This document shows, piece by piece, positions 25,104 to 40,516 of a stretch of DNA of 64,000 bases. How positions within the stretch are numbered: the stretch's first letter is position 1; every line of letters begins with the position of its first letter. Both the position numbers and the translations under genes were made by a program. Source of the DNA: Stigmatella aurantiaca DW4/3-1 (GTDB taxonomy: Bacteria > Myxococcota > Myxococcia > Myxococcales > Myxococcaceae). The notes beneath the pieces were generated by a model. That model ran no database searches. It was given only the letters and a program-made list of their open reading frames with translations, and was not told where the DNA came from. The stretch covers positions 3,863,501 through 3,927,500 of the forward strand of contig NC_014623.1 in NCBI RefSeq assembly GCF_000165485.1, written 5' to 3'.

Positions 25104-25634
25104 TTATGCCCCGGGCTTGCTCTTTCCCGCGGCTCCTGCGGAGAGGTGAGGGTGCTCCGGCGACTCTTCTTCCCGGATGACCGTCTGCCCCAGGGCGTGC
25201 AGCATCGGCATGTTGGTCGCGGTGATGTACTGCACGGCGTGGCCCTCCAACGCGAAGTGTTGGTGCCAGCACCAGGGGGGCGTGTAGAGCGAATCGCCCG
25301 CCTCCCAGTCGAACCGCTTCCCCTCGACGATGGAGTAGCCCTTCCCCGAGATGACGTACATCAATGCCTCGTACGCATGCCGGTGGTTGGACGTTTTGTC
25401 CCCTTGGGCGATCTCCCCAATGCTGCAGCTGACCGCCTTGGTCGGGGCCTTGATGGGGAACACCGGGTGCCCTCGCTCCGCCGAGAAGCCACCCGAGGCG
25501 ATTTCGCCCCGGACGCCCTTATGAAGGCAGGAGGCATCCGGCTGCCGTGACGGGACCACCGTCAGGGAGTTGCGATTCTTCGAGGTGTCCGTGAACGACT
25601 CGGAGCCCTGCTTCTCTTCCGTCACTGGAGCCAT
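25104..25634 (-). CDS. Single-domain cupin resembling half of a gentisate 1,2-dioxygenase (last gene of the AHBA cluster)
   Basis: 176 residues. The metal-binding cupin motifs are NHRHAYEALMYVISGKG and GDSLYTPPWCWHQH; the second strongly resembles the GDxVLTPxWxWHxH motif of gentisate-type ring-cleaving dioxygenases. Gentisate dioxygenase has two cupins, whereas this has one. I chose ATG 25634, which has GAGGA six bases upstream; a GTG at 25658 that overlaps the preceding stop (GTGA) is the alternative. In context the natural substrate is an aminohydroxybenzoate derivative, so ring cleavage or another metal-dependent oxidation is plausible but unproven. Confidence 0.75.
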   Translation of the reverse strand: MAPVTEEKQGSESFTDTSKNRNSLTVVPSRQPDASCLHKGVRGEIASGGFSAERGHPVFPIKAPTKAVSCSIGEIAQGDKTSNHRHAYEALMYVISGKGYSIVEGKRFDWEAGDSLYTPPWCWHQHFALEGHAVQYITATNMPMLHALGQTVIREEESPEHPHLSAGAAGKSKPGA

Positions 25635-25654
25635 CGTTGTTCCTCGGAAATCGT

Positions 25655-26461
25655 TCACGCTGCTTGGGAGGAGGCTTGCCCGACCTGCCGCTGGAGCCGC
25701 AGGTACATGTGATCGAAGAAGTTCCTGCGCGCATCCAGGGCCTTCAGCGTCCCGACCGCCAGGTCCAGGCGCCCCCGGGGGGTCTTCGCCAGGTCCACGG
25801 CGATCTTCCGCAGCACCTCGGCGTGGTCGTCATCCACCATGGCGTGCAGATCGAAGAAGACGCGATCGCGGCGGCTCAGCTCCGGCCACGCCTTCTGGAT
25901 GCCCTTGAGCAGGTAGCCGTACATGTACCGGACGATGCCCTCGGTGGCCACGCCCAGCGCCCCGGCGACCTGCTCCTGCGAGCCGGTGCTGCAGACGTTG
26001 TGGAACGTCTCGATCCACGCCACCGTGGCCACGTCGGGCGTCTCCTCGAGCAGTTGCCGCGCGTCCATCCCCACGGCCGACAGGAAGCGGCGGAACAGGA
26101 CCGGGTGAGGGTAGCGCGCGTCCTCCGGGTCAATCCCCGCCTGGCGCAGTTCCTCCTCGTGGTCAGGGTCCAGCTTCCCGGCCTCCTCGGCCATGTTGCC
26201 CATCAGCGAGGCGCGGTGTTGCGGCGACTCGAGCCGGGAGGTGACCGCGCTCAGGTACTGGGTGAACCGGTAGCTGTAGAAGTAGTACTGGCTGAGCAGA
26301 TCCTTGAGCGCCGCGCGCATGTCCACGAAGTCGCCCCGCCCGATGGCCAGCAGCAGGGGGTGCTTGACAGCGGCGGAGTCGACTGCAAGCGCTTGCAGCC
26401 GGTTGACAAACTCCTCGGGGGAAATCTCGGCTTGGACCAGCTCGGTCAGGTTGTTTCTCAT
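25655..26461 (-). CDS. Heme-oxygenase-like diiron oxidase (HDO/TENA-fold)
   Basis: 268 residues, all-helical heme-oxygenase/TENA fold. The candidate iron ligands of the HDO family are all present: Glu92 or Glu93 and His101 (MAEEAGKLDPDH), Glu174 (ATEGIVRYMYG), and His206-x3-Asp210-x2-His213 (FDLHAMVDDDHAEVL). This last spacing equals that of the Chlamydia protein CADD. HDOs carry out amine N-oxygenation (SznF-type), C-C cleavage (UndA, BesC) or pABA formation (CADD). With an aminophenol pathway next door, N-oxygenation of the amino group is my favoured guess. A CGGAGAG Shine-Dalgarno precedes ATG 26461. Confidence 0.85.
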   Translation of the reverse strand: MRNNLTELVQAEISPEEFVNRLQALAVDSAAVKHPLLLAIGRGDFVDMRAALKDLLSQYYFYSYRFTQYLSAVTSRLESPQHRASLMGNMAEEAGKLDPDHEEELRQAGIDPEDARYPHPVLFRRFLSAVGMDARQLLEETPDVATVAWIETFHNVCSTGSQEQVAGALGVATEGIVRYMYGYLLKGIQKAWPELSRRDRVFFDLHAMVDDDHAEVLRKIAVDLAKTPRGRLDLAVGTLKALDARRNFFDHMYLRLQRQVGQASSQAA

Positions 26462-26523: not shown

Positions 26524-27489
26524 TCAGGTAACGGATGGCGCGGACACGGTGGGGCCCGGTACCCGGGGCTCCACATGCGCGATGAACTCCTCGAAGTGCT
26601 TCAGGACCTCCGCGGGGCGCTCGAGCATCGGCGCGTGTCCACACGCCTTCATTCGCACCACCCTCACATCCCGCAGACCTTGTTCCAGCTTCTCGATGGC
26701 GGTTTCATGAAGAAACCGGTTGGCGTCTCCCCAGATGACGAGCGTTGGAGCGCGGATGCCAGGGAGGTTCTTCTCCAGGAGGTACGGCTGCTCGTTGTTC
26801 CAGAGATCTTTCCAGATGACGCGGTGCAGGGCCTCGGAGGCCAGGGCTTGCTGCCTCAGGTGCAGGTACACCGCGCGAGGGATGAAGGGCCGCTTCACGA
26901 AGAGCAGCTCGGCCACATGGTCGAACTCCTTCGTGTTCCCCGGGACCAACGGTGCCAGGCCCTGACGGATCTGCAAGTCAAGCGCGGTCGGAAGACGGGA
27001 CTCGATGCCCTGCGGCTCCAGGAGGGTGAGGCTCTCCACCTCGTCCGGGTAGTTGTGGGCGAGCATGCCGGCGATGTTGCCGCCCATGGAGTTGCCGACC
27101 AGGTGGTAGCGCTGGATCCCCAGCGCCTGAAGGAACGCGTGGAGCCGCTCGGCCTGCAGAGGAATGAGGAACCGCTCGGAGATGGAGGCGCTCGTTCCAC
27201 CAAAGCCCGGCACATTGGGCGCCAACACCCGGAAATGCTTCACCAGGGAGCCGGCCATCCGGACCCAGTGGTCCGCATTCGCCCCGAAGCCATGCACCAT
27301 GACCATGGGAACGCCCTGGCCGCCCTCCAGATAGCTGAAGGTACGGCCATCGACGGTGAGGCGCTTCTCCTTCAACCCCGAACGCGTCCTCTCCAGGAAC
27401 ACCAACAGCGACGCCCATGGGAGGGGGAAGAGGTAGTAGGAGCCCACCAGCAGCAGCAGTGTTCCCACGAATATGAGCAGTCCAGTCAC
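26524..27489 (-). CDS. Membrane-anchored alpha/beta hydrolase
   Basis: 321 residues. An N-terminal hydrophobic helix (about 3-31, LLIFVGTLLLLVGSYYLF) anchors an alpha/beta-hydrolase fold. The oxyanion region is VHGFGANADHW, the nucleophile elbow GNSMGG, the acid Asp in VIWGDANRFLH and the His in ACGHAPMLE, so the triad appears complete. Sixty-two bases separate it from the diiron oxidase gene downstream and about 90 from the aspartokinase gene upstream. Within the cluster it may hydrolyse or transfer an acyl or aminoacyl group at the membrane; the anchor matches that of the ligase at 37269. Confidence 0.82.
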   Translation of the reverse strand: MTGLLIFVGTLLLLVGSYYLFPLPWASLLVFLERTRSGLKEKRLTVDGRTFSYLEGGQGVPMVMVHGFGANADHWVRMAGSLVKHFRVLAPNVPGFGGTSASISERFLIPLQAERLHAFLQALGIQRYHLVGNSMGGNIAGMLAHNYPDEVESLTLLEPQGIESRLPTALDLQIRQGLAPLVPGNTKEFDHVAELLFVKRPFIPRAVYLHLRQQALASEALHRVIWKDLWNNEQPYLLEKNLPGIRAPTLVIWGDANRFLHETAIEKLEQGLRDVRVVRMKACGHAPMLERPAEVLKHFEEFIAHVEPRVPGPTVSAPSVT

Positions 27490-27578: not shown

Positions 27579-28931
27579 TCAGAGCCCAGCGTTGCTCGCC
27601 CGGCGTTGCTCCACCGGCTGATCCGCATTCTCGGCGCCCAGCTCGAACGTTTCGTGCAGCAGGTTCAGTGCCTTGTCGGCTTGCCCATCCTGAACCAGGC
27701 AGCTGACGCGCAGCTCGCCCGCGGCGACCGACACCAGCTCGATCCCCTCTTGGTTCAGCACCCGGCACGCCGTGGCGGACACTTGGGGATCCGAGCGGAT
27801 GCCCAGCCCCACCAGGGAGACCTTGGCCAGGTTGTTCTCCAGGACGACTTGTTGGGCCTTCACTTCCGCGCCCAGTTGCTCCAGCCGCGCCTGCGCGCGG
27901 TGGACCTCGCTGGTCGGCATGGAGAACGCCACGCTCGCCCGCGACGGCTCGTGCGGCAGGACCGAGTGCGTCACCATGTCCACACTCATGTTCAGCTCGG
28001 CCAACAGGCCCAGGACTTCACCCAGAAGCCCAGAGCGATTCTCGGCCGCGACCAGTTGAACGCGCGTCTGACGGCGATCCACGGCGAGCCCCGTCACCCG
28101 CTGGGACTCCAGTCCCCGGCTCTTGTCGATCACCCACGTACCCGGCTTTCCAGAGAACGTACTGCGAACATGCACAGGGACCTTGTATTTCATAGCGATC
28201 TCCACACTCCTGGATTGCAGAACCTTGGCTCCCAGCGCCGCCAGCTCCAGCATCTCCTCGAAGCCGAGGGAGGGAATCTGGCGCGCGGAGGGGCAGATGT
28301 TGGGGTCCGCCGTGTAGACACCATCCACGTCGGTGTAGATCTCGCACTCGTCCGCCCCCAGCGCGGCGGCCAGCGCCACTGCCGTGGTGTCCGAGCCGCC
28401 ACGCCCCAGGGTGGTGATGTGGTTCTGGGAATCCACCCCTTGGAATCCCGCCACCACCGGGATGATGCGCGCGGCGAGGGCCTCGTGGAGGACCTCGTGC
28501 TCAATGTTGTGGATGCGCGCCTTGGTGAAGGCGTCATCCGTGACGATGCGAACCTGATGGCCAAGGAACGAGCGCCCCTTGCCCCCATGCCGGGAGATGG
28601 CCAGCGCCGTGAGCGCCGCGGACACCTGCTCGCCCGTGGCCGCGATGGCGTCCAGCTCCCGTGTATCCGGTACGGACACCACCTCATGCGCCAGCTTCAG
28701 CAGGCGGTTCGTCTCTCCGCTCATCGCGCTCACCACGAGCACGACGTCGTTGCCGGCCTGCTGGCTTTCCAGGGCCATCCGGGCCACGTCGCTGATGCGC
28801 TCCACATTCGCCACCGACGTCCCGCCGAACTTCATGACCACGAGCGGACGATGTGGGGAACCTGGGGTGGTTCTCCGATTCGACGGGGAGGAACTGTTGT
28901 AGACGAGAGCTTTCATAGAGAGAGGCTGCAT
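27579..28931 (-). CDS. lysC: Aspartokinase embedded in the AHBA cluster
   Basis: 450-residue monofunctional aspartate kinase that supplies 4-phospho-L-aspartate. The kinase domain starts with VVMKFGGTSVANVERI at about residue 31, after an unusual Ser/Pro/Arg-rich N-terminal extension. Other core motifs are ATGEQVSAAL, TTLGRGGSDTTAVALA and CEIYTDVDGVYTADP. Two ACT domains follow (about 305-430). Aspartate semialdehyde is one of the two substrates of the GriI-type aldolase at 30637, so this gene probably boosts precursor flow. No aspartate-semialdehyde dehydrogenase is present in the cluster, so a housekeeping one must be used. Lysine/threonine sensitivity cannot be judged by eye. Confidence 0.92.
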   Translation of the reverse strand: MQPLSMKALVYNSSSPSNRRTTPGSPHRPLVVMKFGGTSVANVERISDVARMALESQQAGNDVVLVVSAMSGETNRLLKLAHEVVSVPDTRELDAIAATGEQVSAALTALAISRHGGKGRSFLGHQVRIVTDDAFTKARIHNIEHEVLHEALAARIIPVVAGFQGVDSQNHITTLGRGGSDTTAVALAAALGADECEIYTDVDGVYTADPNICPSARQIPSLGFEEMLELAALGAKVLQSRSVEIAMKYKVPVHVRSTFSGKPGTWVIDKSRGLESQRVTGLAVDRRQTRVQLVAAENRSGLLGEVLGLLAELNMSVDMVTHSVLPHEPSRASVAFSMPTSEVHRAQARLEQLGAEVKAQQVVLENNLAKVSLVGLGIRSDPQVSATACRVLNQEGIELVSVAAGELRVSCLVQDGQADKALNLLHETFELGAENADQPVEQRRASNAGL

Positions 28932-29097: not shown

Positions 29098-30591
29098 TTA
29101 GGACCCGCCCATGACGGCCTTGAGCAGCTCGCTCCGTTTGATCTTTCCGGAGGCGGTGCTGGGCAGGGACTCGACGAACACGATGCGGTCCGGTCGGAGC
29201 GCCCTCGGCCGCAGGGTCAGTTCCATCCGCTGGCGCACCTGGGCTTCCCATGCCTCCGTGCCCGAGGCCTGCACGTCCGGCTTGAGGACGATGAAGGCCC
29301 TCAGCCGCGTGAGCCCCTCCTCCGTCTTCAGCGCGATGGCCGCCGTGGAAGAGACGCCGGGCTGGGTCAGCAGGAAGTCCTCGAGCTCGTGGGGAGACAC
29401 CCAGCACCCGCTGAGTTTGATCCGGTCTCCCTCGCGCGAGACGAAGCGGAAGCCTTCGCCCTCTGGCGCGAAGAGATCCCCGGTGGAGAGCCCTCCGCTC
29501 CTCGGCGCGAGGGCTCCTTGAGAGAGGTAGCCCAGCATCATGGCGGGGGATTCGACGCTCAGGGCCACCACTTCCTGGGCGGACTCTCCCTCCATGGCAT
29601 GCGGCCGCGCTTGGTACTGGAATGCCCCCACGCGCTTCAGCATGTCACCCGAGGTGTGTGCATCCTCGCTCAGGTAGGGGAGGAAGGTTTCCGTCGTCCC
29701 GATCGAGTTGAGCATCCGCGAGCCGCTGAAGGCCTCCCAGCGCTCGCGCACCAGGCCAGGCAGGTGCTCACCGGCGGCAAAGCTCAGGCGCAGGGACTTC
29801 GGCCGCACGGGCGTTTCCGCGGCCCGGCGCCAGAGGATGTGGTACAAGGTAGGTACTGCCAGCAGGGCGGTGACACGCTCGGCATGGGCCACCTCGAGGA
29901 TGTCGAGGTGACGGGTCCATTCGGGCACCATCACGGCGGTGGCACCCACGCTCAGCGGCACATGCAGCCCCTGCAGTCCGAACGAGAAGTGCGGGCTGGA
30001 GGCGGCCAGGACCCGGTCGTCGGGCCGGATTCCCCAGAGCGCGCGGGTGACGTGCTGTTCGAACCAGGCGAAGGCCCGGTGCGAGTGCACACAGATCTTC
30101 GCCCCCCCGGTCGAGCCCGAGGTCATCAGCATCAGGGCGGGGCGGTCATCTCCCAGCAGCGCTTCCGCCGAGCCCTCCTGGGCGGGGGCAGGCGCTGGTT
30201 CCGCCAACCAGTGCGAGACGTCCGGCAGCGGCTCTCCGACGGAAGAGGTGCGGTCCGACAGCACGCGCTCGGGGGCCACCTTCTCCCAGAGCGCTGGGTA
30301 GTACGCCTCGGCCTGACGGGAGGGCGCGAGCAGCACGGGTCTCCCGGCGCGCATGGCCGACAGCCACGCCACGGCAAACTCCAGCGTGGCGGAGCCCACG
30401 AGCGCCAGCGTGCAGCCCGGCCGTGTGGTCAGCTCGAGCCACCGCGCCATGGCGCACGTGGCATGGTAGAGCTGGCCGTAAGTCAGCTGCCGGCGCCCGA
30501 GGGTGCCGTGCTCGACGAGGGCCTCGCGGTCCGCGTTTCCGCGGGCCACGTGGCGCTCAACGAGAAGAGAGAAGCATCCGGCGGAGTCCAT
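29098..30591 (-). CDS. Adenylate-forming ligase of the benzoate-CoA ligase type
   Basis: 497-residue ANL-superfamily ligase that activates a carboxylate as acyl-AMP and usually forms a CoA thioester. The phosphate loop is TSGSTGGAKICVHSH (about 157-171), motif A5 is NSIGTTETFLPYLS, A7 is LSTGDLF, A8 is FVSREGDRIKLSG and the catalytic lysine is Lys483 in STASGKIKRSELL. Overall length and the SSPHFSFGLQ region resemble benzoate/hydroxybenzoate-CoA ligases. It directly follows the aldolase gene (45-bp gap), so 3-amino-4-hydroxybenzoate is the most likely substrate. No carrier protein is encoded nearby, which favours CoA as acceptor. Confidence 0.88.
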   Translation of the reverse strand: MDSAGCFSLLVERHVARGNADREALVEHGTLGRRQLTYGQLYHATCAMARWLELTTRPGCTLALVGSATLEFAVAWLSAMRAGRPVLLAPSRQAEAYYPALWEKVAPERVLSDRTSSVGEPLPDVSHWLAEPAPAPAQEGSAEALLGDDRPALMLMTSGSTGGAKICVHSHRAFAWFEQHVTRALWGIRPDDRVLAASSPHFSFGLQGLHVPLSVGATAVMVPEWTRHLDILEVAHAERVTALLAVPTLYHILWRRAAETPVRPKSLRLSFAAGEHLPGLVRERWEAFSGSRMLNSIGTTETFLPYLSEDAHTSGDMLKRVGAFQYQARPHAMEGESAQEVVALSVESPAMMLGYLSQGALAPRSGGLSTGDLFAPEGEGFRFVSREGDRIKLSGCWVSPHELEDFLLTQPGVSSTAAIALKTEEGLTRLRAFIVLKPDVQASGTEAWEAQVRQRMELTLRPRALRPDRIVFVESLPSTASGKIKRSELLKAVMGGS

Positions 30592-30636: not shown

Positions 30637-31500
30637 CTAACTGACCGCGGCCAGAGCCGTCCGCTGCTCCCGCGGCCGCTCCTGAACCGGGAGGAAGGGC
30701 CCGATGGAAGGAGGCGCCGACTCCACGTCCTCCAGCACCACCCGCTGCAAGCGCGTGAGGATGTCCGCCGTATTCTCGCGCTGGAACACGTTGCGCCCCA
30801 CGCACAGCCCGGAGGCGCCGTACAGCGCCACGTCCCGGGCCAGGGACAGCATCGCCTCGTCCGAGGTGACCGCTCCGCCCGCGAAGAAGATGGCCGTGTG
30901 GTCCTGGAATCCATCCAGGAGGGCGGGCAGTTCCTCCAGCTTGGCGGGGGCCGCCAGCTTCAGGGCGTCCGTCCCCAGCTCCACGCACGCCCGCATCAGG
31001 TGCCGCAGCCGCGCCAGGCGCTGGTTGTCCTGGAGGTTCGCCACCTTGTCGTAGAGCATGGTCAGCACGGGCATGCCGTAGACTTGGGCCTCATCCACGA
31101 TGGCGCCCAGCATCTTCCAGTTGTGCGCGTCGTTGCTCCCGTCGAAGTTGATCTGCAGGGACACCGCGTCGGCGCCCAGCCGCACCGCCATCTCCACGGA
31201 CGTCAGCATCTCCTTGCGATCCGGGGCCGGCGCCGTGGCCACCGACGTCATGCCGTTGAGGTGGACCATGACGCCCATCCGCTGCAGCAGGCCGCGGTTT
31301 CCCAGCCGCTCCACCATGCCCTTGTGCGCGATGACGCCGGTGATGCCCGGGTGGGGCATCCACTGCTCCATCTGCCGCATGCTGGTCAGACCTGGGATGG
31401 GCCCCAGCGTCAATCCGTGATCAATCGGGACGATGATGCCCCGATTGGAAGTGGCGTGAAGGAAACGCGACCAACGAAGCTTCTTGGCGACTCCATCCAT
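30637..31500 (-). CDS. griI: GriI-type class I aldolase (3,4-AHBA pathway, first committed step)
   Basis: 287-residue DhnA-type TIM-barrel aldolase. In Streptomyces griseus GriI joins L-aspartate 4-semialdehyde with dihydroxyacetone phosphate to give the C7 precursor of 3-amino-4-hydroxybenzoate. Visible here are VPIDHGLTLGPIPGL (Asp27, His28) near the N-terminus, Tyr150 in MLYDKV and the candidate Schiff-base Lys181 in GTDALKLAAP, then a phosphate-binding region around IFFAGGAVTS and GASGLCVGRNVFQ. A GAGGAAC Shine-Dalgarno precedes ATG 31500. The archaeal shikimate-type enzyme (ADH synthase) is the alternative family function, but the pairing with a GriH-type gene in a bacterium favours AHBA. 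Confidence 0.9.
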   Translation of the reverse strand: MDGVAKKLRWSRFLHATSNRGIIVPIDHGLTLGPIPGLTSMRQMEQWMPHPGITGVIAHKGMVERLGNRGLLQRMGVMVHLNGMTSVATAPAPDRKEMLTSVEMAVRLGADAVSLQINFDGSNDAHNWKMLGAIVDEAQVYGMPVLTMLYDKVANLQDNQRLARLRHLMRACVELGTDALKLAAPAKLEELPALLDGFQDHTAIFFAGGAVTSDEAMLSLARDVALYGASGLCVGRNVFQRENTADILTRLQRVVLEDVESAPPSIGPFLPVQERPREQRTALAAVS

Positions 31501-31540: not shown

Positions 31541-32854
31541 CTACAAGTCCGACAGCGCCTCCCGGATGGTCTTCCGGGTGGATTTCAGCGCGGGAATGGC
31601 ACTGGCTCCAACAGCCACCACCGCCAGCACGGCGATCGACAGGGTATAGGCAGGGGCTGACCAGCTGATGGTGATGGGCACGGCGTTGCTCGAGCCGGGA
31701 GGCACCCAGCTGAGTCCCGCCATGCGGACGGACAACGTCACGGCCGCGCTCGCCAGCAGGCCCATGGCGCCAGCCACCAGCGCGAGCAACAAGCTCTCCA
31801 CCCAGCACAGCGACAGCACGAACTCCTTGCTGAAGCCCATGCTGCGCAGGGTGCCGAACTCGCGGATGCGCCCCATGAAGTTCACATAGCTGGTGTTGAG
31901 CAGGCTCATGAAGGACACCACCAGGGTGATGGCCAGCACGAACCCGAAGAAGCCCATGAGCAGCCCGTAGACTTGGTGGTAGAAGGTCGCACGGTCGGAC
32001 CAGTAGAAGACCCGCACCTTGAGGCCCTTGGCCTCGAACGCCTTCATCAGCTTCTCCCGGGCGTCCTCCATGGAGACGCCATCGGCCAGCCTCACGTGGT
32101 ACTTGCTGACAGACTGGGTGTTCATCAGCTCCTGCGCGTCCTTCATCGGCAGGACGACGAGGCGCTGGTTGATCTCCTTGATGCCCCAGTCCATCACGCC
32201 CGTGGCCGGGAAGCTGACGGCGTTGATCTGGCCCTCGTTGGTGACGACGCTGAGCTGGAAGTCCGGCCGGTCGCACTCGAAGGGCCGCTCCTCGGGCTTC
32301 TCCCCAGGCTTCGTGGGGCTGAACCCCACATCCGGCACCTTGCAGCTCAGCGTCCGGGCCAGCTCCTGCCCGACGATCATCGACGGGGTGCCCGCGGTCG
32401 CCCACAGCGGCTTTCCCGCCACCACGTCGTACTCGTACTCCGGACCCTTGATGGCGCGGATCTTCTCCACGTCCTGGCCAATGCCCGTGAAGATGGCATT
32501 GGTGCGTCCATCGGAGACGAGGCCGGAGATCTCCAGCAGGCGGGCATAGGCCATCACGCCCTGGGTCTCCCCCAGCACGCTGTCGATGGTGCGCTGGGCC
32601 TCCTCGGTCAGCAGGACCTTGGCTGCGTCCTCCTGGGCGGCGCCCTCGGCCACGGGGCTCTCGATCATCAATTGGCCGCGGGCGCCCCAGCGGGTGAAGG
32701 CCTCGCTGGTGAGGTCCAGCGTGGCATCCACGTACCCGTACAGCACGTTGCAGGCGAGGATGCCCACTGCCATCACCAGCAGCGTGCTGAGCGACTTGCG
32801 CCAGTAACGCCGCAGGTTCTGCGCGGCCATCCGGAAGACGAGCGAGGTGGTCAT
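31541..32854 (-). CDS. ABC transporter permease, FtsX/MacB type (export line, second permease)
   Basis: 437 residues with the four-helix LolC/MacB layout: helix 1 at about 20-40 (LSTLLVMAVGILACNVLYGY), a large periplasmic domain (about 45-300) and three C-terminal helices in the FtsX domain. The coupling motif is REFGTLRSMGFSKEFV. The periplasmic domain has a Cys pair (LSCKVP and FECDRP) that could form a disulfide. It begins 16 bases after the stop of the permease-LolA fusion and ends 40 bases before the aldolase gene, so the transporter and pathway genes lie in one transcript. Such permeases use mechanotransmission to extract substrates from the membrane or periplasm. Confidence 0.85.
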   Translation of the reverse strand: MTTSLVFRMAAQNLRRYWRKSLSTLLVMAVGILACNVLYGYVDATLDLTSEAFTRWGARGQLMIESPVAEGAAQEDAAKVLLTEEAQRTIDSVLGETQGVMAYARLLEISGLVSDGRTNAIFTGIGQDVEKIRAIKGPEYEYDVVAGKPLWATAGTPSMIVGQELARTLSCKVPDVGFSPTKPGEKPEERPFECDRPDFQLSVVTNEGQINAVSFPATGVMDWGIKEINQRLVVLPMKDAQELMNTQSVSKYHVRLADGVSMEDAREKLMKAFEAKGLKVRVFYWSDRATFYHQVYGLLMGFFGFVLAITLVVSFMSLLNTSYVNFMGRIREFGTLRSMGFSKEFVLSLCWVESLLLALVAGAMGLLASAAVTLSVRMAGLSWVPPGSSNAVPITISWSAPAYTLSIAVLAVVAVGASAIPALKSTRKTIREALSDL

Positions 32855-32870
32855 GGGTATCTACGCGGGC

Positions 32871-34925
32871 TCAGCGCCCCAGATTGGCGAGGTTGAAGAG
32901 GTTGTCCGGGTGGGTCGCGGACTTCAGGTTGGAGTAGGCCAGCGTGCTGTGCTGGTTGGCGTACTTGCTGTCGACGATCTTCAGCTCCGAGATGAAGGGC
33001 GACGGGTTCGGCCCAGGCGTCTTGTTGCCGTACTTCATCAGCGAGTACTTGAAGGGCGTTCCCGAGGTGGTGAGGTACTCGGCCTTGAGCGCCAGGTGAT
33101 TTTCCTTGTCCAGGTAGAAGATGACCTGGTCGTAGGTGACGTCCTTGCGCTTGGCCATCAGGCGGACCTTGTGCACGGCACGGCCGTCCACGGTGTCCTC
33201 GCCCAGCAGCGTCGGATCATAGTTGTCCGCGAACTGCGCGGAGGCGATGTCGCCGTTGGCCGCCTGGCCACTCAGGCGCTGGCGCGGGCTGATGCTCACC
33301 GGCTTGCGCAGCCCCGGCTTCATGAACCACATGGAGCGCGCCTGGATGAGGATCTGCTCTCCCTTGCTGCTGACGGGCGTGAGCGTGTAGGCGAGCGCCT
33401 TGTCGCCCTTCACATCCACCCGGTAGGACGTCTCGGTGCGGCCCGAGGGCTCTTCCGAGTCGATGGTCAGGCTCCAGGTGTACGCGCCGTAGCCGCCACG
33501 GGCCAGATCCGAAGCACGGATCCACTCTCGCAGCGCATCGACGGACGGCGGCCCCGCGGGCTGTGCGGCGGCGGGAGCCGCGGCCGGGGGCGACTCAGCG
33601 TGAGCGGGCGAGGCTCCCAGCCCCACCAGCGTGGCGGTCACGAACAAGGCAAAGGACAACAAGCGCGTCTGGAACGCATCCACGATTTGCCCCTCCATCC
33701 GCTTCTTGGCGGACCGATACGAAATCAACGCAGCCATGACTCCTCCTGCGATCAGAACTGCAACGAACCCAGCGGCACCCAACTGAATGCTCACCGGTAC
33801 CGGAATCGATAGACGCGGCAGGGTGGTCGTGAGGTTCGTCCGCGCCAGCGCCAACGCGACGATGACGGTCGAGACGATTCCTCCCACCGCGCCAAGCGAG
33901 GCGAGGATGAGTGCCTCCCGTGCGAACAGGCCTCCCAGCCGCCCCTTGCCAAAACCGATGGCCCGGAGCGTGCCCAGCTCCCGCACCCGCTCCAGAACAC
34001 TGATGTTGATGGTGTTCTGGACGGTCAACACACACACCAGCATCACGATGACGCCGGTGAAGGCGAACACCACACCCATGAACCCCATCACGCTCTCGTA
34101 CAGCTTGCCAATGGCCGGGTGCTTCCAGGTGGTGACCTCGTAGCCCGGCAGTTCCGTGTCCAGCTTCTGCTGCAACTGGGCGGACACGGCGGGGGTCAGC
34201 TCGCGGTCGGTCAGCACGACCACCATCCGCGACGCGTCCTCGGTGCGGTAGAGATCCTGGAGCAGCTTCAGGGGCACCTTGATGCTCTTGTTCTCCGTCT
34301 CCTCGATGGAGGTGGAGAACTCGCCCACCACGTCCGCGTCCGAGGCATTCAGGCGGCGGTCGAACCCGATGCCCGCCAACTGCACGTAGGGGGCCTCGCC
34401 CACGGCGGCCGGCTTGAGGTCCAGCACCTGCTTGAGCTGCTTCGTCAGCCAGAGCGAAGGTTTGCCCTCCTCAAGCGCTTCGCCCGAGGTGAAGTCGTCC
34501 ATGGACGTGGCCACCGCCGCACTCCCGGCCAGACGGATCTTCCGGTCATCCTCGGGCACCACGCCCGAGGCCAGGAAGACGGCGGTCCGGTCGTTGTTCT
34601 GGATGATGCCCACCCCCTCCATCTGCGGGGTGACCAGCGTCACGCCCTGGAGCCCAGAGGCGACCTCGCGGATGCGCTGCTGGGCCTTGGCGTCAATGGA
34701 GAACTTCTCGGGCTCCGTCGCCAGGTGCGTCAGCGCGTCCTTCTTGTAGACCTGCACGTGGCCGTTGCCCTGCCGGTAGATGACCACCGCCGACAGCGTG
34801 CGTTCGATGAACTGGACGTACCCCAGGAAGAGGAGCACGCCCAGCGCGCCGAAGCCCACGGAGATCATCGTCACAGCGGACCGACGGGAGTCACGCCAGA
34901 TATTGCGGAATGCGAGCGCCCACAT
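32871..34925 (-). CDS. Fusion of an FtsX/MacB-type permease and a LolA-like lipoprotein-sorting domain
   Basis: 684 residues in one uninterrupted frame. Residues 1-425 form a complete permease: helix 1 near 17-37, a periplasmic domain, three helices (for example VVFAFTGVIVMLVCVLTV and GFVAVLIAGGVMAALISY) and the coupling motif RELGTLRAIGFGKGRLG. At about 430-452 a segment like a signal peptide follows (LLSFALFVTATLVGLGASPAHA). The last 230 residues match outer-membrane lipoprotein-sorting (LolA/LolB-like) proteins: a half-barrel rich in beta strands (MWFMKPGLRKPVSISPRQ, VDGRAVHKVRLMAKR, VIFYLDKENHLALKAEYL). The fusion would hold the shuttle domain in the periplasm beside its own permease. It may alternatively be cleaved at AHA. 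Confidence 0.85.
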   Translation of the reverse strand: MWALAFRNIWRDSRRSAVTMISVGFGALGVLLFLGYVQFIERTLSAVVIYRQGNGHVQVYKKDALTHLATEPEKFSIDAKAQQRIREVASGLQGVTLVTPQMEGVGIIQNNDRTAVFLASGVVPEDDRKIRLAGSAAVATSMDDFTSGEALEEGKPSLWLTKQLKQVLDLKPAAVGEAPYVQLAGIGFDRRLNASDADVVGEFSTSIEETENKSIKVPLKLLQDLYRTEDASRMVVVLTDRELTPAVSAQLQQKLDTELPGYEVTTWKHPAIGKLYESVMGFMGVVFAFTGVIVMLVCVLTVQNTINISVLERVRELGTLRAIGFGKGRLGGLFAREALILASLGAVGGIVSTVIVALALARTNLTTTLPRLSIPVPVSIQLGAAGFVAVLIAGGVMAALISYRSAKKRMEGQIVDAFQTRLLSFALFVTATLVGLGASPAHAESPPAAAPAAAQPAGPPSVDALREWIRASDLARGGYGAYTWSLTIDSEEPSGRTETSYRVDVKGDKALAYTLTPVSSKGEQILIQARSMWFMKPGLRKPVSISPRQRLSGQAANGDIASAQFADNYDPTLLGEDTVDGRAVHKVRLMAKRKDVTYDQVIFYLDKENHLALKAEYLTTSGTPFKYSLMKYGNKTPGPNPSPFISELKIVDSKYANQHSTLAYSNLKSATHPDNLFNLANLGR

Positions 34926-34929
34926 GGCT

Positions 34930-35652
34930 TTATCCCAAGGCCTTCTTCAGGGGCGCCGCTGCCGTGTCTTCCTGCAGCTTGCCGTCCCGGATGCGGATGA
35001 TGCGGTCCACCTTGCCGAGCAGGGACGCGTCATGCGTGGAGAAAACGAACGTCACGCCGCTCTCTTTGTTGAGCTTGCGCATGAGCTCGATGATGGCTTC
35101 CGAGTTGCTCGAGTCCAGGTTGGCCGTCGGCTCGTCGGCGAGCACCAGGTTGGGCTTGGTCACCAGCGCCCGGGCAATGCTCACGCGCTGCCGCTGGCCG
35201 CCTGACAGCTGGTCCGGCAGGTGGTCGATGTAGTGCTCCAGCCCCACCTGTCGCAGCGCGTGCTCCGCCTGCTCTCGCATCTGCTGGGCCTTCAGTCCGT
35301 GCAGTTGCAGCGGCAGCATCACGTTCTCCACGGCCTTGAGCACGGGGATCAAGTTGAAGCTCTGGAAGATGAAGCCAATGGCCCTGGAGCGCAGCTTGTC
35401 CAATGCCTTCTCATCCAGGTCCGACGTACGCGTGCCGCTGATCTTCACTTCGCCGCTGGTCGGAACGTCCAGGCAGCCAATGAGGTTGAGCAGGGTGCTC
35501 TTCCCGCTGCCGCTGGGGCCCGTGATGGCCGCGAAATCATTCTTGCGGATCCCCAAGGAAATCTCCTTGAGCGCATCCACCTCGGTGGTGCCAAGCTTGA
35601 AGCGCTTGGAAACCGAGCTCAACTCGACGACGTTGGTCTGCTCCGGGTTCAT
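34930..35652 (-). CDS. ABC transporter ATP-binding protein, LolD/MacB type
   Basis: 240 residues. Walker A GPSGSGKST, Q-loop region IFQSFNLIPVLKAVENVMLP, signature LSGGQRQRVSIARAL, Walker B LVLADEPTANLD and the switch His in FSTHDASLL are all canonical. It drives the two FtsX-type permeases encoded next (gap of four bases to the fusion gene). The ATG at 35652 is preferred because AAGGA lies at the right distance; the ATG at 35658 adds only two residues. LolD-type ATPases power movement of lipidated or hydrophobic cargo out of the inner membrane. Confidence 0.92.
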   Translation of the reverse strand: MNPEQTNVVELSSVSKRFKLGTTEVDALKEISLGIRKNDFAAITGPSGSGKSTLLNLIGCLDVPTSGEVKISGTRTSDLDEKALDKLRSRAIGFIFQSFNLIPVLKAVENVMLPLQLHGLKAQQMREQAEHALRQVGLEHYIDHLPDQLSGGQRQRVSIARALVTKPNLVLADEPTANLDSSNSEAIIELMRKLNKESGVTFVFSTHDASLLGKVDRIIRIRDGKLQEDTAAAPLKKALG

Positions 35653-35667
35653 CGTCATCCTTTCAAT

Positions 35668-37269
35668 TCAGTGCGTAAAGCTCAGGCCCACACGGACGAA
35701 GCGCTCGAAGGGAAAGCGCTGCACGGAGGACTCTGGGCCGAAGTTGAGCGCCAGTGAGACGAACCCCTTAAAACTATCATAGGAGAAGGAGAGTTCGCCC
35801 GCGGCGATAAGAGAGTCGCTTGGGTTCGTATACATCAAGCTCGTTGATAAAGTCACCCGCTTGCCCGGAGGCAGATCCGGGAAACGCCCGTGCACCAGCG
35901 CGTATCGTTTATCGAGAAAAGGGTGGATGCCAATCCCTGCCGACGTGCCCGCCAGCAGCAGCGGGTACAGTGTGGGAAGTTGTTCCTGAGCCGAGCCGCT
36001 CAGCGCGAATTCGTTTACACCCACCTCGGCGCCAATCTCTCCGCCAGAGCTGAGGCCGTAGCGCACATTGATCAGGCCGTCATAGCCCCAGGCATCCTCG
36101 TGCAAGAACAGGCCGGGCGGGCCGAAGTTCAGGTCGCGCTTGCGTGAGTAGCCCTTGGAAGTGGAGAACTCGGTGCCCACCGTCCAGGCGTCCGACAGCA
36201 AGATCTCGAAATACAGGCCGCCGTGAGGCTGGAATCGCTCGCCTCCCCCTGCCACCGCTCCCAGGGTGAAAGGAAATTCCCCTTGTGACTGGTACTCCAG
36301 GCGCGAGGACGCGAAGTAGGAGCGCAGCGGCTCTTCCGCGCCCCAATCCGAGTCATCCGCCCGGGCCCCCATCACGAAGAGCGTCATCTCCGGCAGCAGT
36401 TCCACATTCACCGCCACCATCCTCCGGCGAATGGGTTCACGCTGGGCGGTGGTGAAAAGTGTTTCCGGGAAAATGCGGTTGGTGGGGCTGTAGAAGATAC
36501 CGGGCCCCCAGCCTTGCACCTGGCTGCCGACCGCGACCACCACCCGGGGAATGGCACTCACCGAGAGGTACAACTCGTGGAAGTAAAAGTCAGGATCCAC
36601 GTTGGGCTCAAACTGCCAGGTGAGCCGGGGCCGGAAGATGAGCGAGCTGCCGTTGCACACCTCGAAGTTACAAATGAGTGTCTCGTTGGAGAACAGCCAC
36701 ACACTTCCGAGGTTCTGCTTGGGCTTCAACCCCAGGATGGGGGTTTCGAAGTGGTCGTAGCGCAGCTCCAAGGTATTGGAGTGTCTCAGCTCGAAGTGAT
36801 CCAGGAAGCCCGGGGTGTCCTCGGCCGGCGGGCTCTCGTCCACGGCCGCGTCCGGATCCTGCCCTTCGGGGGGCGTGGCTTCGGCGGAAGGCGTGGCTTC
36901 GGCAGGGAGCATGGCGGCGTCGGAAGACGGGTCTTCGTCGGAAGGTGCAACAGCGGCAAAAAGGGGAGCGACGTGAAAAGACGAGACAGCGGGCAAAAGC
37001 GTGACAGCAGGTCTCGCAAAGGCCTCGGAAAGTCGCGTGCCGGTGGGGATAGGTGGGGCGGACGCCAGACCGAAAGGAGGAGGCGGGGAGGCGAGCGCCT
37101 TCATCCCGCCCGCCGCCAGTCCTTGAGCGTGTGCCGTCTTGCGGCCCCACTCCCTGGCTCCGGGTGGCTCGATGTTTCCAGCAAGAGCCTCTTCGACGGT
37201 GGCGCATGTCACGAGGCACGCCACCATTCCAGAAGCCCAGGCCCCCCATTTCGACAACCAACGCTTCAT
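35668..37269 (-). CDS. Outer-membrane beta-barrel protein of the export line
   Basis: 533 residues. A signal peptide (about 1-30, ACLVTCATVEEALAG) is followed by a low-complexity region rich in Ala, Pro, Glu and Ser (about 60-150), then roughly 370 residues of alternating strands with aromatic girdle residues (LELRYDHFETPILGL, DFYFHELYLSV, GGLYFEILLSD, LSFSYDSFKGFVSLALNF), ending VRVGLSFTH. No TolC-type helices are visible, so it is not a classical efflux duct. The start codon overlaps the stop of the ligase gene (TAATG). It may be the outer-membrane acceptor or exit port for the cluster product. No named family recognised. Confidence 0.75.
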   Translation of the reverse strand: MKRWLSKWGAWASGMVACLVTCATVEEALAGNIEPPGAREWGRKTAHAQGLAAGGMKALASPPPPFGLASAPPIPTGTRLSEAFARPAVTLLPAVSSFHVAPLFAAVAPSDEDPSSDAAMLPAEATPSAEATPPEGQDPDAAVDESPPAEDTPGFLDHFELRHSNTLELRYDHFETPILGLKPKQNLGSVWLFSNETLICNFEVCNGSSLIFRPRLTWQFEPNVDPDFYFHELYLSVSAIPRVVVAVGSQVQGWGPGIFYSPTNRIFPETLFTTAQREPIRRRMVAVNVELLPEMTLFVMGARADDSDWGAEEPLRSYFASSRLEYQSQGEFPFTLGAVAGGGERFQPHGGLYFEILLSDAWTVGTEFSTSKGYSRKRDLNFGPPGLFLHEDAWGYDGLINVRYGLSSGGEIGAEVGVNEFALSGSAQEQLPTLYPLLLAGTSAGIGIHPFLDKRYALVHGRFPDLPPGKRVTLSTSLMYTNPSDSLIAAGELSFSYDSFKGFVSLALNFGPESSVQRFPFERFVRVGLSFTH

Positions 37270-39038
37270 TAGGATCCCGCGCGGAAAACCCGCTTCAATG
37301 TCTTTCCTGTCACACCGATGGGGAACTCACTCCACCGGGTGACCTTGAGTTCTGCCAGCCGGTCTTTCTCCGGCAGTTTCGCGTTCAGTTCAAGCCTGAG
37401 TCGCTCGGCATCCATCGAATCCGCGCCGTTCTTGAGCGCCACCGCCGCGGCGGGCACCACCTTGCCGTCCGCCTGGGTCAGCGCGAAGACCGTGGTGTCG
37501 AAGACCGCAGGGTGCTTGAGGACTTCCTCCTCCATCAGGAGGGTGTAGCTGACCCCCTGCTGGTGGCTGATGACATCCACCTCGCGGTCCAGATGGACGA
37601 ACTCTCCATCGGGCTGGCGGATGACGATGTCCCCGGTGAACCACCAGCCGTTCTGAGAGGAGGACAGCAGCTTGTCGTGGGCATTCCAGTAACCGCCGAA
37701 CATGCAAGGCCCCTTGATGGCGAAGCGCCCCGGCTGGCCATCCGGCACCGGCTGCCAGTTCTCGTCCACCACCCGGACCTGGGGCCCGAAGAAGGGGACC
37801 GGACGACCCACGCGCCGCCCGAACTGCTTCGTCCACGGCCCGGCGATGCGCAGCAGCGCGGCGATGCCCACCTCGCTCGAGCCCAGCCCGTCCACGAACA
37901 GGGAGCCCGGCACCGGGATGCCCAGTTGCTGCAGGAACGAGCCCTTCTGGATGAGGGGGCGCTGGTGGACCTCGTGGCTGGCGTCCGCCGTGGTGCCCCA
38001 GATGCGCATGGCGTTCAGGTCGTACTTGGTCAGGTCCTCTACCACCAGCTGGGCATAGGTGATGGGGAAGCCGAAGTAGATGGAAGCGCGCCGCCGGGAG
38101 AGCGTCTCCAGCACGCGCTCGGCCTTGAACTCCGAGGACATGATGACCCGTGTCCCGAGCGCCAGCGTGGTGAAGATGTAGAGGTTGGTGACCTGGTGGT
38201 TGAAGGGAACGCAGAAGTACGCCAGGTCCTTGCGCCCCACGAGGTTGAACATCAGCGTCGCCTTGAGCGACTGCGTCAGCCCCCGCGCCAGCAAGATGAC
38301 GCCCTTGGGGAAGCCCGTCGTCCCGGAGGTGTGGACGATGTAGAGCGGATCATCCAGCCCCCGCTCGACGGCCTGCGCCGGCTCCACCGGCTGGGCGAGC
38401 ATCCATTGCAGGCTGAGCACGCGGGGCCCTGCGGGCAGCTGGGCCAGCTCGGTGGGGATCCCGTCCTGTCCGTCCGTCCCCGCGTCGGAGACGATGACGA
38501 ACTCGACGCCCTGCAGCTTCACCCCATCCTTCACCAGACGTCCCAGGGTGGCCAGGTCCGTGATGATCACCTTGGCCCCGAGGTAGGTCACGTACTGGCC
38601 GAACGACTCGGAGGCCAGCTTCCCGTTGACGGGCGTCGCGATGCCGCCGATGCGGATGGTGGCGGAGGCGAACAGGAAGAGGTCGAACGCGTTTTCCTTG
38701 TAAATGATGACGCGATCGCCCATCTGCGGTTTCGCGAACTTCTTCAGCGCGCCCGCGATCAGCGCCACCGTCTGCTGTACCCGGACGGCGCTCCACTCCT
38801 GCTCCTGGGCCGCGCGGACCTTCCCGGCGGGCACCTTCCACTTCAGGGGGGTCTCCAGCTCAATCAGGGTGGTGTCGCCATAGCGGGCGGCGGATTGATC
38901 CACGATTTTGTCGATGCTGGCCAGGCCGCCGAACAGCAGCCCCAGCCGCTCCGGGAAGCCCAGCTTGACGAAGCAGTACGCCATCCACCCCAGCACCAAC
39001 GCCAGCAATACACCCACCACGATGAGAACCAGCTGCAT
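37269..39038 (-). CDS. Membrane-anchored adenylate-forming (acyl-CoA synthetase-like) ligase
   Basis: 589 residues. Residues 2-23 are one hydrophobic helix (LVLIVVGVLLALVLGW), followed by an ANL ligase. The phosphate loop is HTSGTTGFPKG (237-246), A5 is DGLGSSEVGIAAL, A7 is WWFTGDIVIRQ, A8 begins VHLDREVDVIS and the C-terminal lysine region is GVTGKTLKRVFRAG. The A8 linker lacks the usual Gly-Arg pair. The anchor suggests a membrane-associated substrate such as a fatty acid or a lipophilic intermediate. It is coupled to the barrel gene by a TAATG overlap and lies 47 bases after the acyltransferase gene. Confidence 0.85.
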   Translation of the reverse strand: MQLVLIVVGVLLALVLGWMAYCFVKLGFPERLGLLFGGLASIDKIVDQSAARYGDTTLIELETPLKWKVPAGKVRAAQEQEWSAVRVQQTVALIAGALKKFAKPQMGDRVIIYKENAFDLFLFASATIRIGGIATPVNGKLASESFGQYVTYLGAKVIITDLATLGRLVKDGVKLQGVEFVIVSDAGTDGQDGIPTELAQLPAGPRVLSLQWMLAQPVEPAQAVERGLDDPLYIVHTSGTTGFPKGVILLARGLTQSLKATLMFNLVGRKDLAYFCVPFNHQVTNLYIFTTLALGTRVIMSSEFKAERVLETLSRRRASIYFGFPITYAQLVVEDLTKYDLNAMRIWGTTADASHEVHQRPLIQKGSFLQQLGIPVPGSLFVDGLGSSEVGIAALLRIAGPWTKQFGRRVGRPVPFFGPQVRVVDENWQPVPDGQPGRFAIKGPCMFGGYWNAHDKLLSSSQNGWWFTGDIVIRQPDGEFVHLDREVDVISHQQGVSYTLLMEEEVLKHPAVFDTTVFALTQADGKVVPAAAVALKNGADSMDAERLRLELNAKLPEKDRLAELKVTRWSEFPIGVTGKTLKRVFRAGS

Positions 39039-39085: not shown

Positions 39086-40516
39086 TCAGGCTGCGACACT
39101 TTCGGCGGAGATGGAGAACTCCTGGAACATGTCTCGCAACGCCCGCTTCACGCCTTCGATGATTTGCTCCCGGAAGTCCTTGAACGCATCCGGGTAGTAG
39201 ACCGCGTTGAGCTCCAACCTCTGGTGAAGCTTGGGGGTATAGAGAATGAAGTCCAAGGGAGGAAGCGCACACCCAAACCCGATGTAGTCCTCCACGGGCA
39301 GATCGCTCCGGCCGCACGTCCGGAAGTCCTCGTGGATGACGCCGGGGTTGGAGTAGGCCACGCTCGTCTGCTGGAAGCCGTCCAGCAGCGTCAACCCCAG
39401 CCCATGCAGCACCGGGTTCCGCAGGAACGTGCACATCAGTTTCAGCTTTTCGATCTCCAGGTGGACCCGGCCGCCCACCTTCACCTCGGAGATCTGCTGG
39501 GCGATGTCACTCAGCAGCTCCCGCGAACTGGCCCCCAGCCGGTAGCTCAGCCGGCAAGGCAGCATGAAGTTGCGGTAGTGCTTGCTGAAGGTGGGCCCCG
39601 CCATGTTGCGCATGCTGATGGGGACGATCGCCTTCACCCGCTGATCCTTGCCCGGCTTCAGCGGCAGCTCTGGCTCCATGGCCCGGACCAGCGCCGCGGT
39701 GAAGAGGGTATTGAGGGTGTGCCCCGAAGATTGGGCCAGCGCGTGGATGCTGGCTTGCATCTCCTCGGACAGCACCTCCCGGTGGAAGTCCACCTCGCGC
39801 GCCTTCTGCCGGCGCACGGTCTTCGAGGCCGGACGCAGCCCCAGGGTCTTCTCCAGGACTTCCCGCTTGGCATCCATCGCCACGTTCCACAGGCCGAGCC
39901 CCGTGCGATCCTTGGGCGGAGGAAGTACCTGGGAGACGCCTCGGAAGGAATGGTCGCGCGGCGCGTCGGCCACCCACCGCTCGGCCCCGCCGTGGAGCGC
40001 ACCGTAGGTCTGCAGGAGCGTCTCCAGAAGCATGGAGTCGCTCTTGGCATCCGCGGTGGCGTGCGAGGCCGTCATCAGGAAGCACGAGCGGTCCGGATCC
40101 ACGGGGCTCTGGACGAGCCAGAAGCGCACGGGCGGCGTCTGCTGCCAGTCCACCGGGTGGTCTTTGCTCAGGTTGGTGAGAAAACGCCGGAAGGGGGTGT
40201 GCTCAAAATGGATGCGCCCCTCGAACTTCACCTCCTGAAACAGGACCTCCTCGGGCTTCCACGCATTGAGCAGGATGGTGCCTTTGTGCACCTCGGGCCG
40301 GCTCAACAGGATGGGGAAGGCCGGGACGGTCTGGCGGATGGCCCGTTCCATGATGCCGAACTTCAGCGGGGCCTTCGTCACGATGATCTGCATCGCGTTG
40401 CCGTTGACGCCCCGCCGGGCCGTATGGATGAACAGCTCCGCCAGGGGGTCCAACTCCTCGCGGTCCCCCTGGGGTGCCAATGCTGTGGGTCCTTGCGCCG
40501 GATCAGGCCGCCGCAT
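39086..40516 (-). CDS. Stand-alone condensation-like acyltransferase
   Basis: 476 residues of the CoA-dependent acyltransferase superfamily (NRPS condensation domain, PapA, wax-ester-synthase relatives). The catalytic motif is Ser151-His152-Ala-Thr-Ala-Asp156, i.e. HxxxD with Ser in place of the first His of HHxxxD. A DFILYTPKLHQR-like C-terminal strand region resembles the structural half. No carrier or adenylation domain is attached. The start at ATG 40516 (GAGGAAC upstream) overlaps the reductase gene by 14 bases; the longer upstream frame lies inside that gene. It probably joins an activated acyl group to an amine or hydroxyl, for example AHBA or its reduced form. Confidence 0.8.
   Translation of the reverse strand: MRRPDPAQGPTALAPQGDREELDPLAELFIHTARRGVNGNAMQIIVTKAPLKFGIMERAIRQTVPAFPILLSRPEVHKGTILLNAWKPEEVLFQEVKFEGRIHFEHTPFRRFLTNLSKDHPVDWQQTPPVRFWLVQSPVDPDRSCFLMTASHATADAKSDSMLLETLLQTYGALHGGAERWVADAPRDHSFRGVSQVLPPPKDRTGLGLWNVAMDAKREVLEKTLGLRPASKTVRRQKAREVDFHREVLSEEMQASIHALAQSSGHTLNTLFTAALVRAMEPELPLKPGKDQRVKAIVPISMRNMAGPTFSKHYRNFMLPCRLSYRLGASSRELLSDIAQQISEVKVGGRVHLEIEKLKLMCTFLRNPVLHGLGLTLLDGFQQTSVAYSNPGVIHEDFRTCGRSDLPVEDYIGFGCALPPLDFILYTPKLHQRLELNAVYYPDAFKDFREQIIEGVKRALRDMFQEFSISAESVAA

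What the first reader, a model, noticed from the sequence alone, without database searches (positions are those of the whole stretch)
25655..26461. HDO-fold enzyme with a full CADD-like ligand set next to an aminophenol pathway
Seen: Glu92/93, His101, Glu174, His206-x3-Asp210-x2-His213. Established: HDO proteins perform N-oxygenation, oxidative C-C cleavage and pABA formation. Inferred: N-oxygenation of the AHBA amino group (to nitroso or nitro), or oxidation of an activated AHBA, is a reasonable but untested reaction.
Basis: partly seen in the sequence, partly recalled or inferred. Interest (0 to 1): 0.65.

Follow-up and report, generated by a model that had tools for sequence, protein, structure and literature searches.

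The report
Diiron oxidase paired with diazotase-like ligase
A bacterial iron enzyme next to the genes for an aminophenol building block is one half of a conserved two-enzyme oxidase pair that, in this bacterial order, stands near every diazotase-type ligase found, so it may be a new way of supplying the nitrogen oxide needed to make diazo-type bonds.

Summary
The gene at 25655-26461 (-) encodes a true HDO-fold protein (PF14518; AlphaFold model pLDDT 91, closest to HrmI, BesC and CADD) with a complete 3-His/3-carboxylate ligand set, but one assigned ligand is wrong. His101 is Glu or Asn in relatives, and its segment is deleted in others. The ligand is His119, so the set is Glu93 (Glu92 also invariant), His119, Glu174, His206, Asp210, His213. 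CADD's sacrificial Tyr and Lys are absent.

The gene belongs to a 14-gene run with GriH/GriI (3,4-AHBA) and aspartate kinase. Its closest partner is the overlapping cupin gene: in every family member examined the HDO is beside, or fused to, such a cupin.

A second association was unexpected. In 145 genomes of the order only nine ligases of the diazotase/N-nitrosylase clade (AvaA6, Tri17) were found. All nine lie within about 16 kb of an HDO-cupin pair, in three cluster types; seven are in AHBA clusters, two in a PKS cluster without AHBA. No nitrosuccinate lyase (CreD) reaches its cut-off.

I therefore propose that HDO plus cupin make an N-O species, most likely nitrite, for the ligase. AHBA itself as substrate is weakened, not excluded. 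The reaction is inference.

The parts
25655..26461 (-). HDO-fold dimetal oxidase/oxygenase (268 aa); ligands E93, H119, E174, H206, D210, H213
   Evidence: invariant in all relatives, aligned to CADD H88
   Evidence: E or N in relatives, segment deleted in type-2 HDOs
25104..25658 (-). three-His cupin, gentisate-dioxygenase-like; overlaps the HDO gene end if the GTG start is used (a later in-frame ATG is possible)
26524..27489 (-). alpha/beta hydrolase
27579..28931 (-). aspartate kinase (aspartate semialdehyde supply for GriI, inferred)
29098..30591 (-). AMPlig1, benzoate-CoA-ligase-like ANL enzyme
30637..31500 (-). GriI-type aldolase of 3,4-AHBA formation
31541..32854 (-). ABC permease (FtsX/MacB-like)
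32871..34925 (-). ABC permease fused to LolA-like domain
34930..35658 (-). ABC ATPase (by translation)
35668..37269 (-). putative outer-membrane protein, no Pfam family
37269..39038 (-). AMPlig2, ANL enzyme of the diazotase/N-nitrosylase clade; DASHEVHQR motif at residue 352
39086..40582 (-). PapA/condensation-like acyltransferase (hits below the curated cut-offs)
40503..41606 (-). thioester-reductase-like SDR
41637..42878 (-). GriH-type 3,4-AHBA synthase (DHQ synthase II family)

Best explanation
The protein is the dimetal (most likely diiron) half of a two-enzyme oxidase module, HDO plus a three-histidine cupin, that serves N-N chemistry by the diazotase-clade ANL enzyme of the same cluster. 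Shown: the HDO fold and full ligand set (with H119), the conserved HDO-cupin pairing, and the co-location of HDO-cupin with every diazotase-clade ANL found in this order. Inferred: the HDO N-oxygenates an amine, the cupin completes the oxidation or rearrangement, and the released N-O species, most likely nitrous acid/nitrite, is used by the ANL enzyme at 37269-39038 with ATP to diazotise or nitrosate the amino group of an AHBA-derived intermediate. The module would replace the CreE/CreD route.
For: HDO fold: PF14518, model pLDDT 91, VIA Z 25.8 HrmI, 24.1 BesC, 24.0 CADD. Ligands. Cupin beside or fused in all members examined; of 11 PF14518 genes in this genome only 3 have such a cupin, so it is not a general property of HDOs. 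In 145 genomes only 9 ANL genes match the AvaA6 diazotase model at E<=1e-45, and all 9 are within about 16 kb of an HDO-cupin pair: 5 type-2 AHBA clusters, 2 window-type, 2 in a PKS cluster without GriHI. The ANL tree puts the window enzyme with Tri17 and the other solved members at 100/100, apart from same-genome acyl-CoA ligases, with a shared DA[AS]HExHxR-type motif. Among 22 GriH loci the 7 with HDO-cupin are the same 7 with this ANL. CreM-type pathways use CreD/CreE nitrous acid (PMC11429834); no CreD over cut-off in 145 genomes. HDO+cupin is the architecture of SznF and GrbD and of HamA/HamB (PMC11705231, PMC11659414).
Against: No reaction is shown. The HDO fold also supports C-C cleavage and desaturation, and Z values for HrmI, BesC and CADD are within 2. 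The nine loci are only about three independent cluster types. The window ANL is sister to, not inside, the characterised clade, and scores far below the AvaA6 cut-off (199 against 975 bits); the G078/G079 enzymes score higher for a general acyl-CoA ligase model. Fused and gammaproteobacterial HDO-cupin copies have no such ANL in the stretches fetched around them. The cupin resembles gentisate dioxygenases, not SznF. Nitrite could come from nitrate reduction. CreE was not searched for, and one PF00206 gene of this genome was not classified.
Confidence: 0.4

Rival explanations
1. One reading: the HDO N-oxygenates the amino group of 3,4-AHBA, or of an AHBA thioester or ester, to hydroxylamino, nitroso or nitro; the cupin acts on the product.
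For: HDO in the GriH/GriI operon; a second, about 30% identical HDO-cupin pair recurs in another AHBA cluster type in five genomes; HDO N-oxygenases HrmI and SznF are known (PMC13108848); no copper oxidase was seen among the cluster genes.
Against: Most GriHI loci (15 of 22) lack HDO. The close pair in G078/G079 stands without GriHI, and fused and gammaproteobacterial pairs have no AHBA genes nearby. A diazotase-clade ligase would need the free amine that this reaction consumes.
Confidence: 0.2
2. HDO and cupin catalyse a different oxidation of a cluster or general metabolite, such as C-C cleavage, desaturation or aromatic ring cleavage by the gentisate-dioxygenase-like cupin, unrelated to N-O chemistry.
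For: BesC and CADD are as near in fold as HrmI; the cupin is nearest to gentisate and 5-nitrosalicylate dioxygenases; pairs also occur alone, away from N-N genes.
Against: It does not explain why every diazotase-clade ANL in the order has an HDO-cupin pair nearby.
Confidence: 0.27
3. The co-location is incidental: HDO-cupin is a self-contained accessory, for instance protection against a reactive product or metal or redox homeostasis, carried along in mobile clusters, and AMPlig2 is an ordinary acyl-CoA ligase.
For: Only about three independent cluster types; OsmC peroxiredoxin follows the cupin in type 2; the G078/G079 ANL scores best with a general ligase model.
Against: Differently assembled clusters keep the trio, and the ANL tree is strongly supported.
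Confidence: 0.1
4. CADD-like self-sacrificing pABA synthase, or TenA thiaminase.
For: CADD is among the nearest solved structures; TENA_THI-4 is a weak second Pfam hit.
Against: CADD Tyr27 and Lys152 are Leu37 and Leu184; score 60 against the CADD cut-off 200; a full metal ligand set is conserved.
Confidence: 0.03

Closest known systems
SznF / GrbD (HDO-cupin N-nitrosating enzymes); HamA with HamB (fragin cluster)
   Same: An HDO and a cupin work together, as one chain or as neighbouring genes; N-oxygenation linked to N-N chemistry.
   Different: The cupin is gentisate-dioxygenase-like, and no SznF match appeared in the sequence-profile lists; fold Z to the SznF HDO is only 17.3; SznF has an N-terminal domain and a 3H/4C set; here a separate diazotase-clade ligase and AHBA genes are present.
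CreE/CreD nitrous acid pathway with CreM/AvaA6/CmaA6 diazotases (cremeomycin, avenalumate, crexazone clusters)
   Same: An arylamine scaffold (3,4-AHBA in cremeomycin and crexazone clusters) plus an ANL enzyme of the diazotase clade.
   Different: No CreD-type lyase in the cluster or over cut-off in 145 genomes; HDO plus cupin stand where CreE/CreD would be. That they replace them is inference.
HrmI / BesC / CADD (3H/3C HDOs)
   Same: Fold and six-ligand set.
   Different: About 20% identity; insert 94-117 with an extra helix; CADD catalytic Tyr/Lys absent; partner cupin.
Closoxazole cluster of Pyxidicoccus fallax (PMC12118335)
   Same: Myxobacterial 3,4-AHBA pathway with AMP ligases; a similar locus exists elsewhere in this genome (L015).
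   Different: The window cluster has no condensing amidohydrolase and adds HDO, cupin, diazotase-clade ANL, PapA-like protein and an ABC export system.

Membership tests
HDO (heme-oxygenase-like dimetal oxidases, PF14518) | Heme-oxygenase fold | tested here: met
   PF14518 1.9e-24; model pLDDT 91.3; Z 24-26 to HrmI, BesC, CADD
HDO (heme-oxygenase-like dimetal oxidases, PF14518) | Six-residue 3H/3C ligand set E-H-E-H-D-H | tested here: met
   E93, H119, E174, H206, D210, H213 invariant and aligned to CADD ligands; H101 rejected.
HDO (heme-oxygenase-like dimetal oxidases, PF14518) | Binds Fe or Mn and activates O2 | not testable with these tools
   needs purified protein
CADD / pABA synthase | Score over the TIGR04305 cut-off | tested here: not met
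   59.8 bits against 200
CADD / pABA synthase | Sacrificial Tyr27 and Lys152 (positions recalled, not looked up) | tested here: not met
   aligned to Leu37 and Leu184
SznF/GrbD-type HDO-cupin enzymes | HDO and cupin together | tested here: met
   adjacent here, fused in paralogues
SznF/GrbD-type HDO-cupin enzymes | Sequence kinship of HDO and cupin to SznF | tested here: inconclusive
   no SznF chain at E<=0.1 with HDO profile A1 nor among the best 60 listed for the cupin profile; HDO fold Z 17.3
Three-His iron cupin (gentisate dioxygenase-like) | HxH plus distal His | tested here: met
   H92, H94 and H132 invariant in 10 relatives; gentisate 1,2-dioxygenase 3bu7 E=4.9e-32 with the profile. 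Metal binding itself not tested
Diazotase/N-nitrosylase ANL (AvaA6, Tri17) for 37269-39038 | Groups with characterised members, apart from acyl-CoA ligases | tested here: met
   100/100 clade with 8ztz, 9xb8, Tri17 and type-2 enzymes; sister lineage, not nested
Diazotase/N-nitrosylase ANL (AvaA6, Tri17) for 37269-39038 | Score over the NF058622 equivalog cut-off (975) | tested here: not met
   199 bits; type-2 enzymes 476 bits. It is not claimed to be AvaA6
Diazotase/N-nitrosylase ANL (AvaA6, Tri17) for 37269-39038 | Nitrite- and ATP-dependent diazotisation | not testable with these tools
   needs assay
CreE/CreD nitrous acid pathway | CreD nitrosuccinate lyase present | tested here: not met
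   0 of 145 genomes over cut-off 650; best hit in this genome is PcaB-like, 381 bits
CreE/CreD nitrous acid pathway | CreE flavin monooxygenase present | not tested
   no genome search made for CreE

The most novel reading that the evidence does not exclude
HDO plus cupin form a previously undescribed nitrous-acid (nitrite) or N-O donor pathway, independent of CreE/CreD, that feeds diazotase-clade ligases in myxobacterial AHBA and polyketide clusters, and that exists alone in other bacteria as a nitrite or NO source.
Probability: 0.28. Interest if true: 0.8.

Novelty: new variant of a known kind. Interest (0 to 1): 0.6.

Why it matters
Known ATP-dependent diazotases are typically fed by the CreE/CreD nitrous acid pathway. 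In this bacterial order every diazotase-clade ligase found lacks CreD and instead has an HDO-cupin pair nearby. If that pair makes the nitrite or another N-O donor, it is a second biosynthetic source for biological diazo and nitroso groups and a new function for the HDO superfamily, of which only about a dozen members are characterised. It also gives a genome-mining handle (HDO + cupin + DA[AS]HExHxR ligase) for diazo-type products in myxobacteria. The correction of His101 to His119 matters for any mutagenesis.

Tried and rejected
First genome-contig scan with the window protein alone found nothing; the second with alignment A1 found five loci. A scan of 369 genomes of the Sideroxyarcus class found no further member. 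The HDO gave no PHROGs hit. The two-domain model of the fused protein was mediocre (pLDDT 74), and its fold search listed mostly HDO-domain matches, so cupin placement relative to SznF could not be tested. E112 as first ligand (spacing 7 to H119 as in CADD) was rejected because it is not conserved. D/E100 as a seventh, SznF-like ligand was rejected because type-2 HDOs lack the segment. The HDO tree of distant PF14518 paralogues was unresolved. Plasmid searches found an HDO without cupin in Indioceanicola (outside the pair family, 32% identical) and cupins without HDO. No paper was found that links HDO proteins to 3,4-AHBA or to diazotases, or diazotisation and nitrous acid to myxobacteria; the library lacks most subscription journals.

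Full report
Observation. The ORF at 25655-26461 (-) is a real gene for a 268-aa protein with PF14518 (1.9e-24) as best family and TENA_THI-4 a weak second. The codon-position composition is coding-like and a 95% identical orthologue lies in a syntenic cluster of a close relative. AlphaFold on an 11-sequence alignment gave pLDDT 91.3 and pTM 0.88. VIA-align ranks HrmI (Z 25.8), BesC (24.1) and CADD (24.0) first, with UndA at 21.1, HamA at 20.8 and SznF at 17.3.

Ligands. It is Glu in the fused myxobacterial paralogues and Asn in gammaproteobacterial relatives, and in the type-2 HDOs the whole segment is deleted. His119, in the motif PHPxLFRRF, is invariant and is the residue HMMER aligns with CADD His88 and with the corresponding His of BesC and HrmI. 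The first alignment stretch pairs Glu93 with CADD Glu81 (the CADD ligand numbers are from my own knowledge). The set is E93, H119, E174, H206, D210, H213, with E92 also invariant; residues 94-117 are an insert with an extra helix (99-107). CADD Tyr27 and Lys152, recalled as the sacrificial residues, fall on Leu37 and Leu184, and the protein scores 60 bits against a CADD cut-off of 200. So it is a complete 3H/3C HDO but not a CADD-type pABA synthase.

Surroundings. A run of 14 minus-strand genes (42878 to 25104) encodes GriH, a thioester-reductase-like SDR, a PapA-like protein, an ANL enzyme (AMPlig2), a putative outer-membrane protein, an ABC ATPase, two permeases (one fused to a LolA-like domain), GriI, a benzoate-CoA-ligase-like enzyme (AMPlig1), aspartate kinase, an alpha/beta hydrolase, the HDO and a cupin. 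GriH, GriI and aspartate kinase match the known 3,4-AHBA route. A second GriH-GriI-AK locus in the genome (L015) resembles the closoxazole cluster described in Pyxidicoccus fallax (PMC12118335).

The cupin. It overlaps the end of the HDO gene. Every member of the HDO family examined has one: as a neighbour in G077, G078 and G079; fused to the HDO (about 435 aa) in G047, G073, G097 and G114 and at a paralogous locus of this genome; and as a neighbour in gammaproteobacterial and other proteobacterial MAGs. Of 11 PF14518 genes in this genome only three have such a cupin. H92, H94 and H132 of the cupin are invariant; its nearest solved relatives are gentisate 1,2-dioxygenases. Among characterised HDOs a cupin partner is known for SznF, and is reported for GrbD and for HamA/HamB in N-N pathways (PMC13108848, PMC11705231, PMC11659414).

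The unexpected link. Weaker HDO hits in five genomes lie about 5 kb from GriH. These loci are a second AHBA cluster type: AK, GriH, GriI, amidohydrolase, BagE/FevW-like ligase, ANL enzyme, HDO (about 32% identical), cupin (about 37%) and, in four of the five, OsmC. Their ANL enzyme matches the AvaA6 diazotase model at 476 bits. Its best solved matches are 8ztz, 9xb8 and Tri17 (384, 361 and 344 bits), with 4-coumarate-CoA ligase next at 105; 9BQ0/8TF7 are Tri17 according to PMC11705231, while the function of 8ztz and 9xb8 was not looked up. In the window, AMPlig2 is by far the best AvaA6-model hit of the genome (189 bits against 76). A maximum-likelihood tree puts it, with the G078/G079 enzymes, as sister to type-2 plus the solved diazotase-clade proteins (whole clade 100/100), apart from acyl-CoA ligases of the same genome; they share a DA[ASV]H[E/A]xHx[R/K] motif absent from the other ligases.

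How strong is the link. In 145 genomes of the order only nine genes match the diazotase model at E<=1e-45, and all nine are within about 16 kb of an HDO-cupin pair. Seven are in AHBA clusters; two (G078, G079) are in a cluster with PKS, MMPL, PaaA-like and PapA-like genes and no GriHI nearby. Among 22 GriH loci the seven with HDO-cupin are the same seven with this ANL. A crude estimate of chance co-location is 0.6% per locus, or about 2e-7 for three independent cluster types. The relation is one-way: fused and gammaproteobacterial HDO-cupin copies have no such ANL in the stretches fetched. That asymmetry is what one would expect if the pair supplies a small co-substrate from a common metabolite, but it does not prove it.

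Mechanism. Known CreM-type pathways obtain nitrous acid from CreE/CreD (PMC11429834). No nitrosuccinate lyase reaches its cut-off in any of the 145 genomes, and the best hit of this genome is a PcaB-like protein. CreE and nitrate reductases were not searched. The best-supported proposal is that HDO plus cupin generate an N-O species, most likely nitrite, for the ANL enzyme, which then diazotises or nitrosates an AHBA-derived amine; export by the ABC system is a guess from gene content. Fold, ligands, pairing and co-location are shown; substrate, product and the nitrite step are inferred.

Novelty. Each part belongs to a known superfamily. The combination of HDO, gentisate-dioxygenase-like cupin and diazotase-clade ligase, without CreD, was not found described in the searched library, which lacks most subscription journals.

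Noticed in passing
L015 (G000:C1:7490500-7510000): A second GriH-GriI-aspartate kinase locus of the same genome with AMP ligases and an amidohydrolase-like gene, closoxazole-like and without HDO or cupin.
   Followed up: partly
L098:9511-10794 (G000:C1 ~762 kb): A third HDO-cupin fusion (427 aa) in this genome whose alpha-3 H-x3-D-x2-H motif is lost and whose cupin histidines are changed; a degenerate, possibly non-catalytic paralogue.
   Followed up: partly
L020, L014, L021-L024: Fused HDO-cupin genes sit in a conserved cluster with GNAT, dipeptidyl-peptidase-III-like, SDR, DUF2817 and LuxR genes of unknown product.
   Followed up: partly
L074-L076 (G079:C15) and L075 (G078:C27): PKS cluster with diazotase-clade ANL, PapA-like protein, PaaA-like diiron protein and MMPL exporter about 14 kb from the HDO-cupin pair.
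   Followed up: partly
L049 (Burkholderia stagnalis plasmid plas2): A distant HDO in a fatty-acid/PKS-like cluster ordered alpha/beta hydrolase, HDO, aldolase, diiron oxygenase.
   Followed up: no
L025 (G124:C35): An HDO of this family in a frame that runs on from a cNMP-binding-like stretch, followed by a divergent cupin.
   Followed up: no
window 32871-34925: An FtsX/LolC-type permease fused to a LolA-like domain in one ORF.
   Followed up: no
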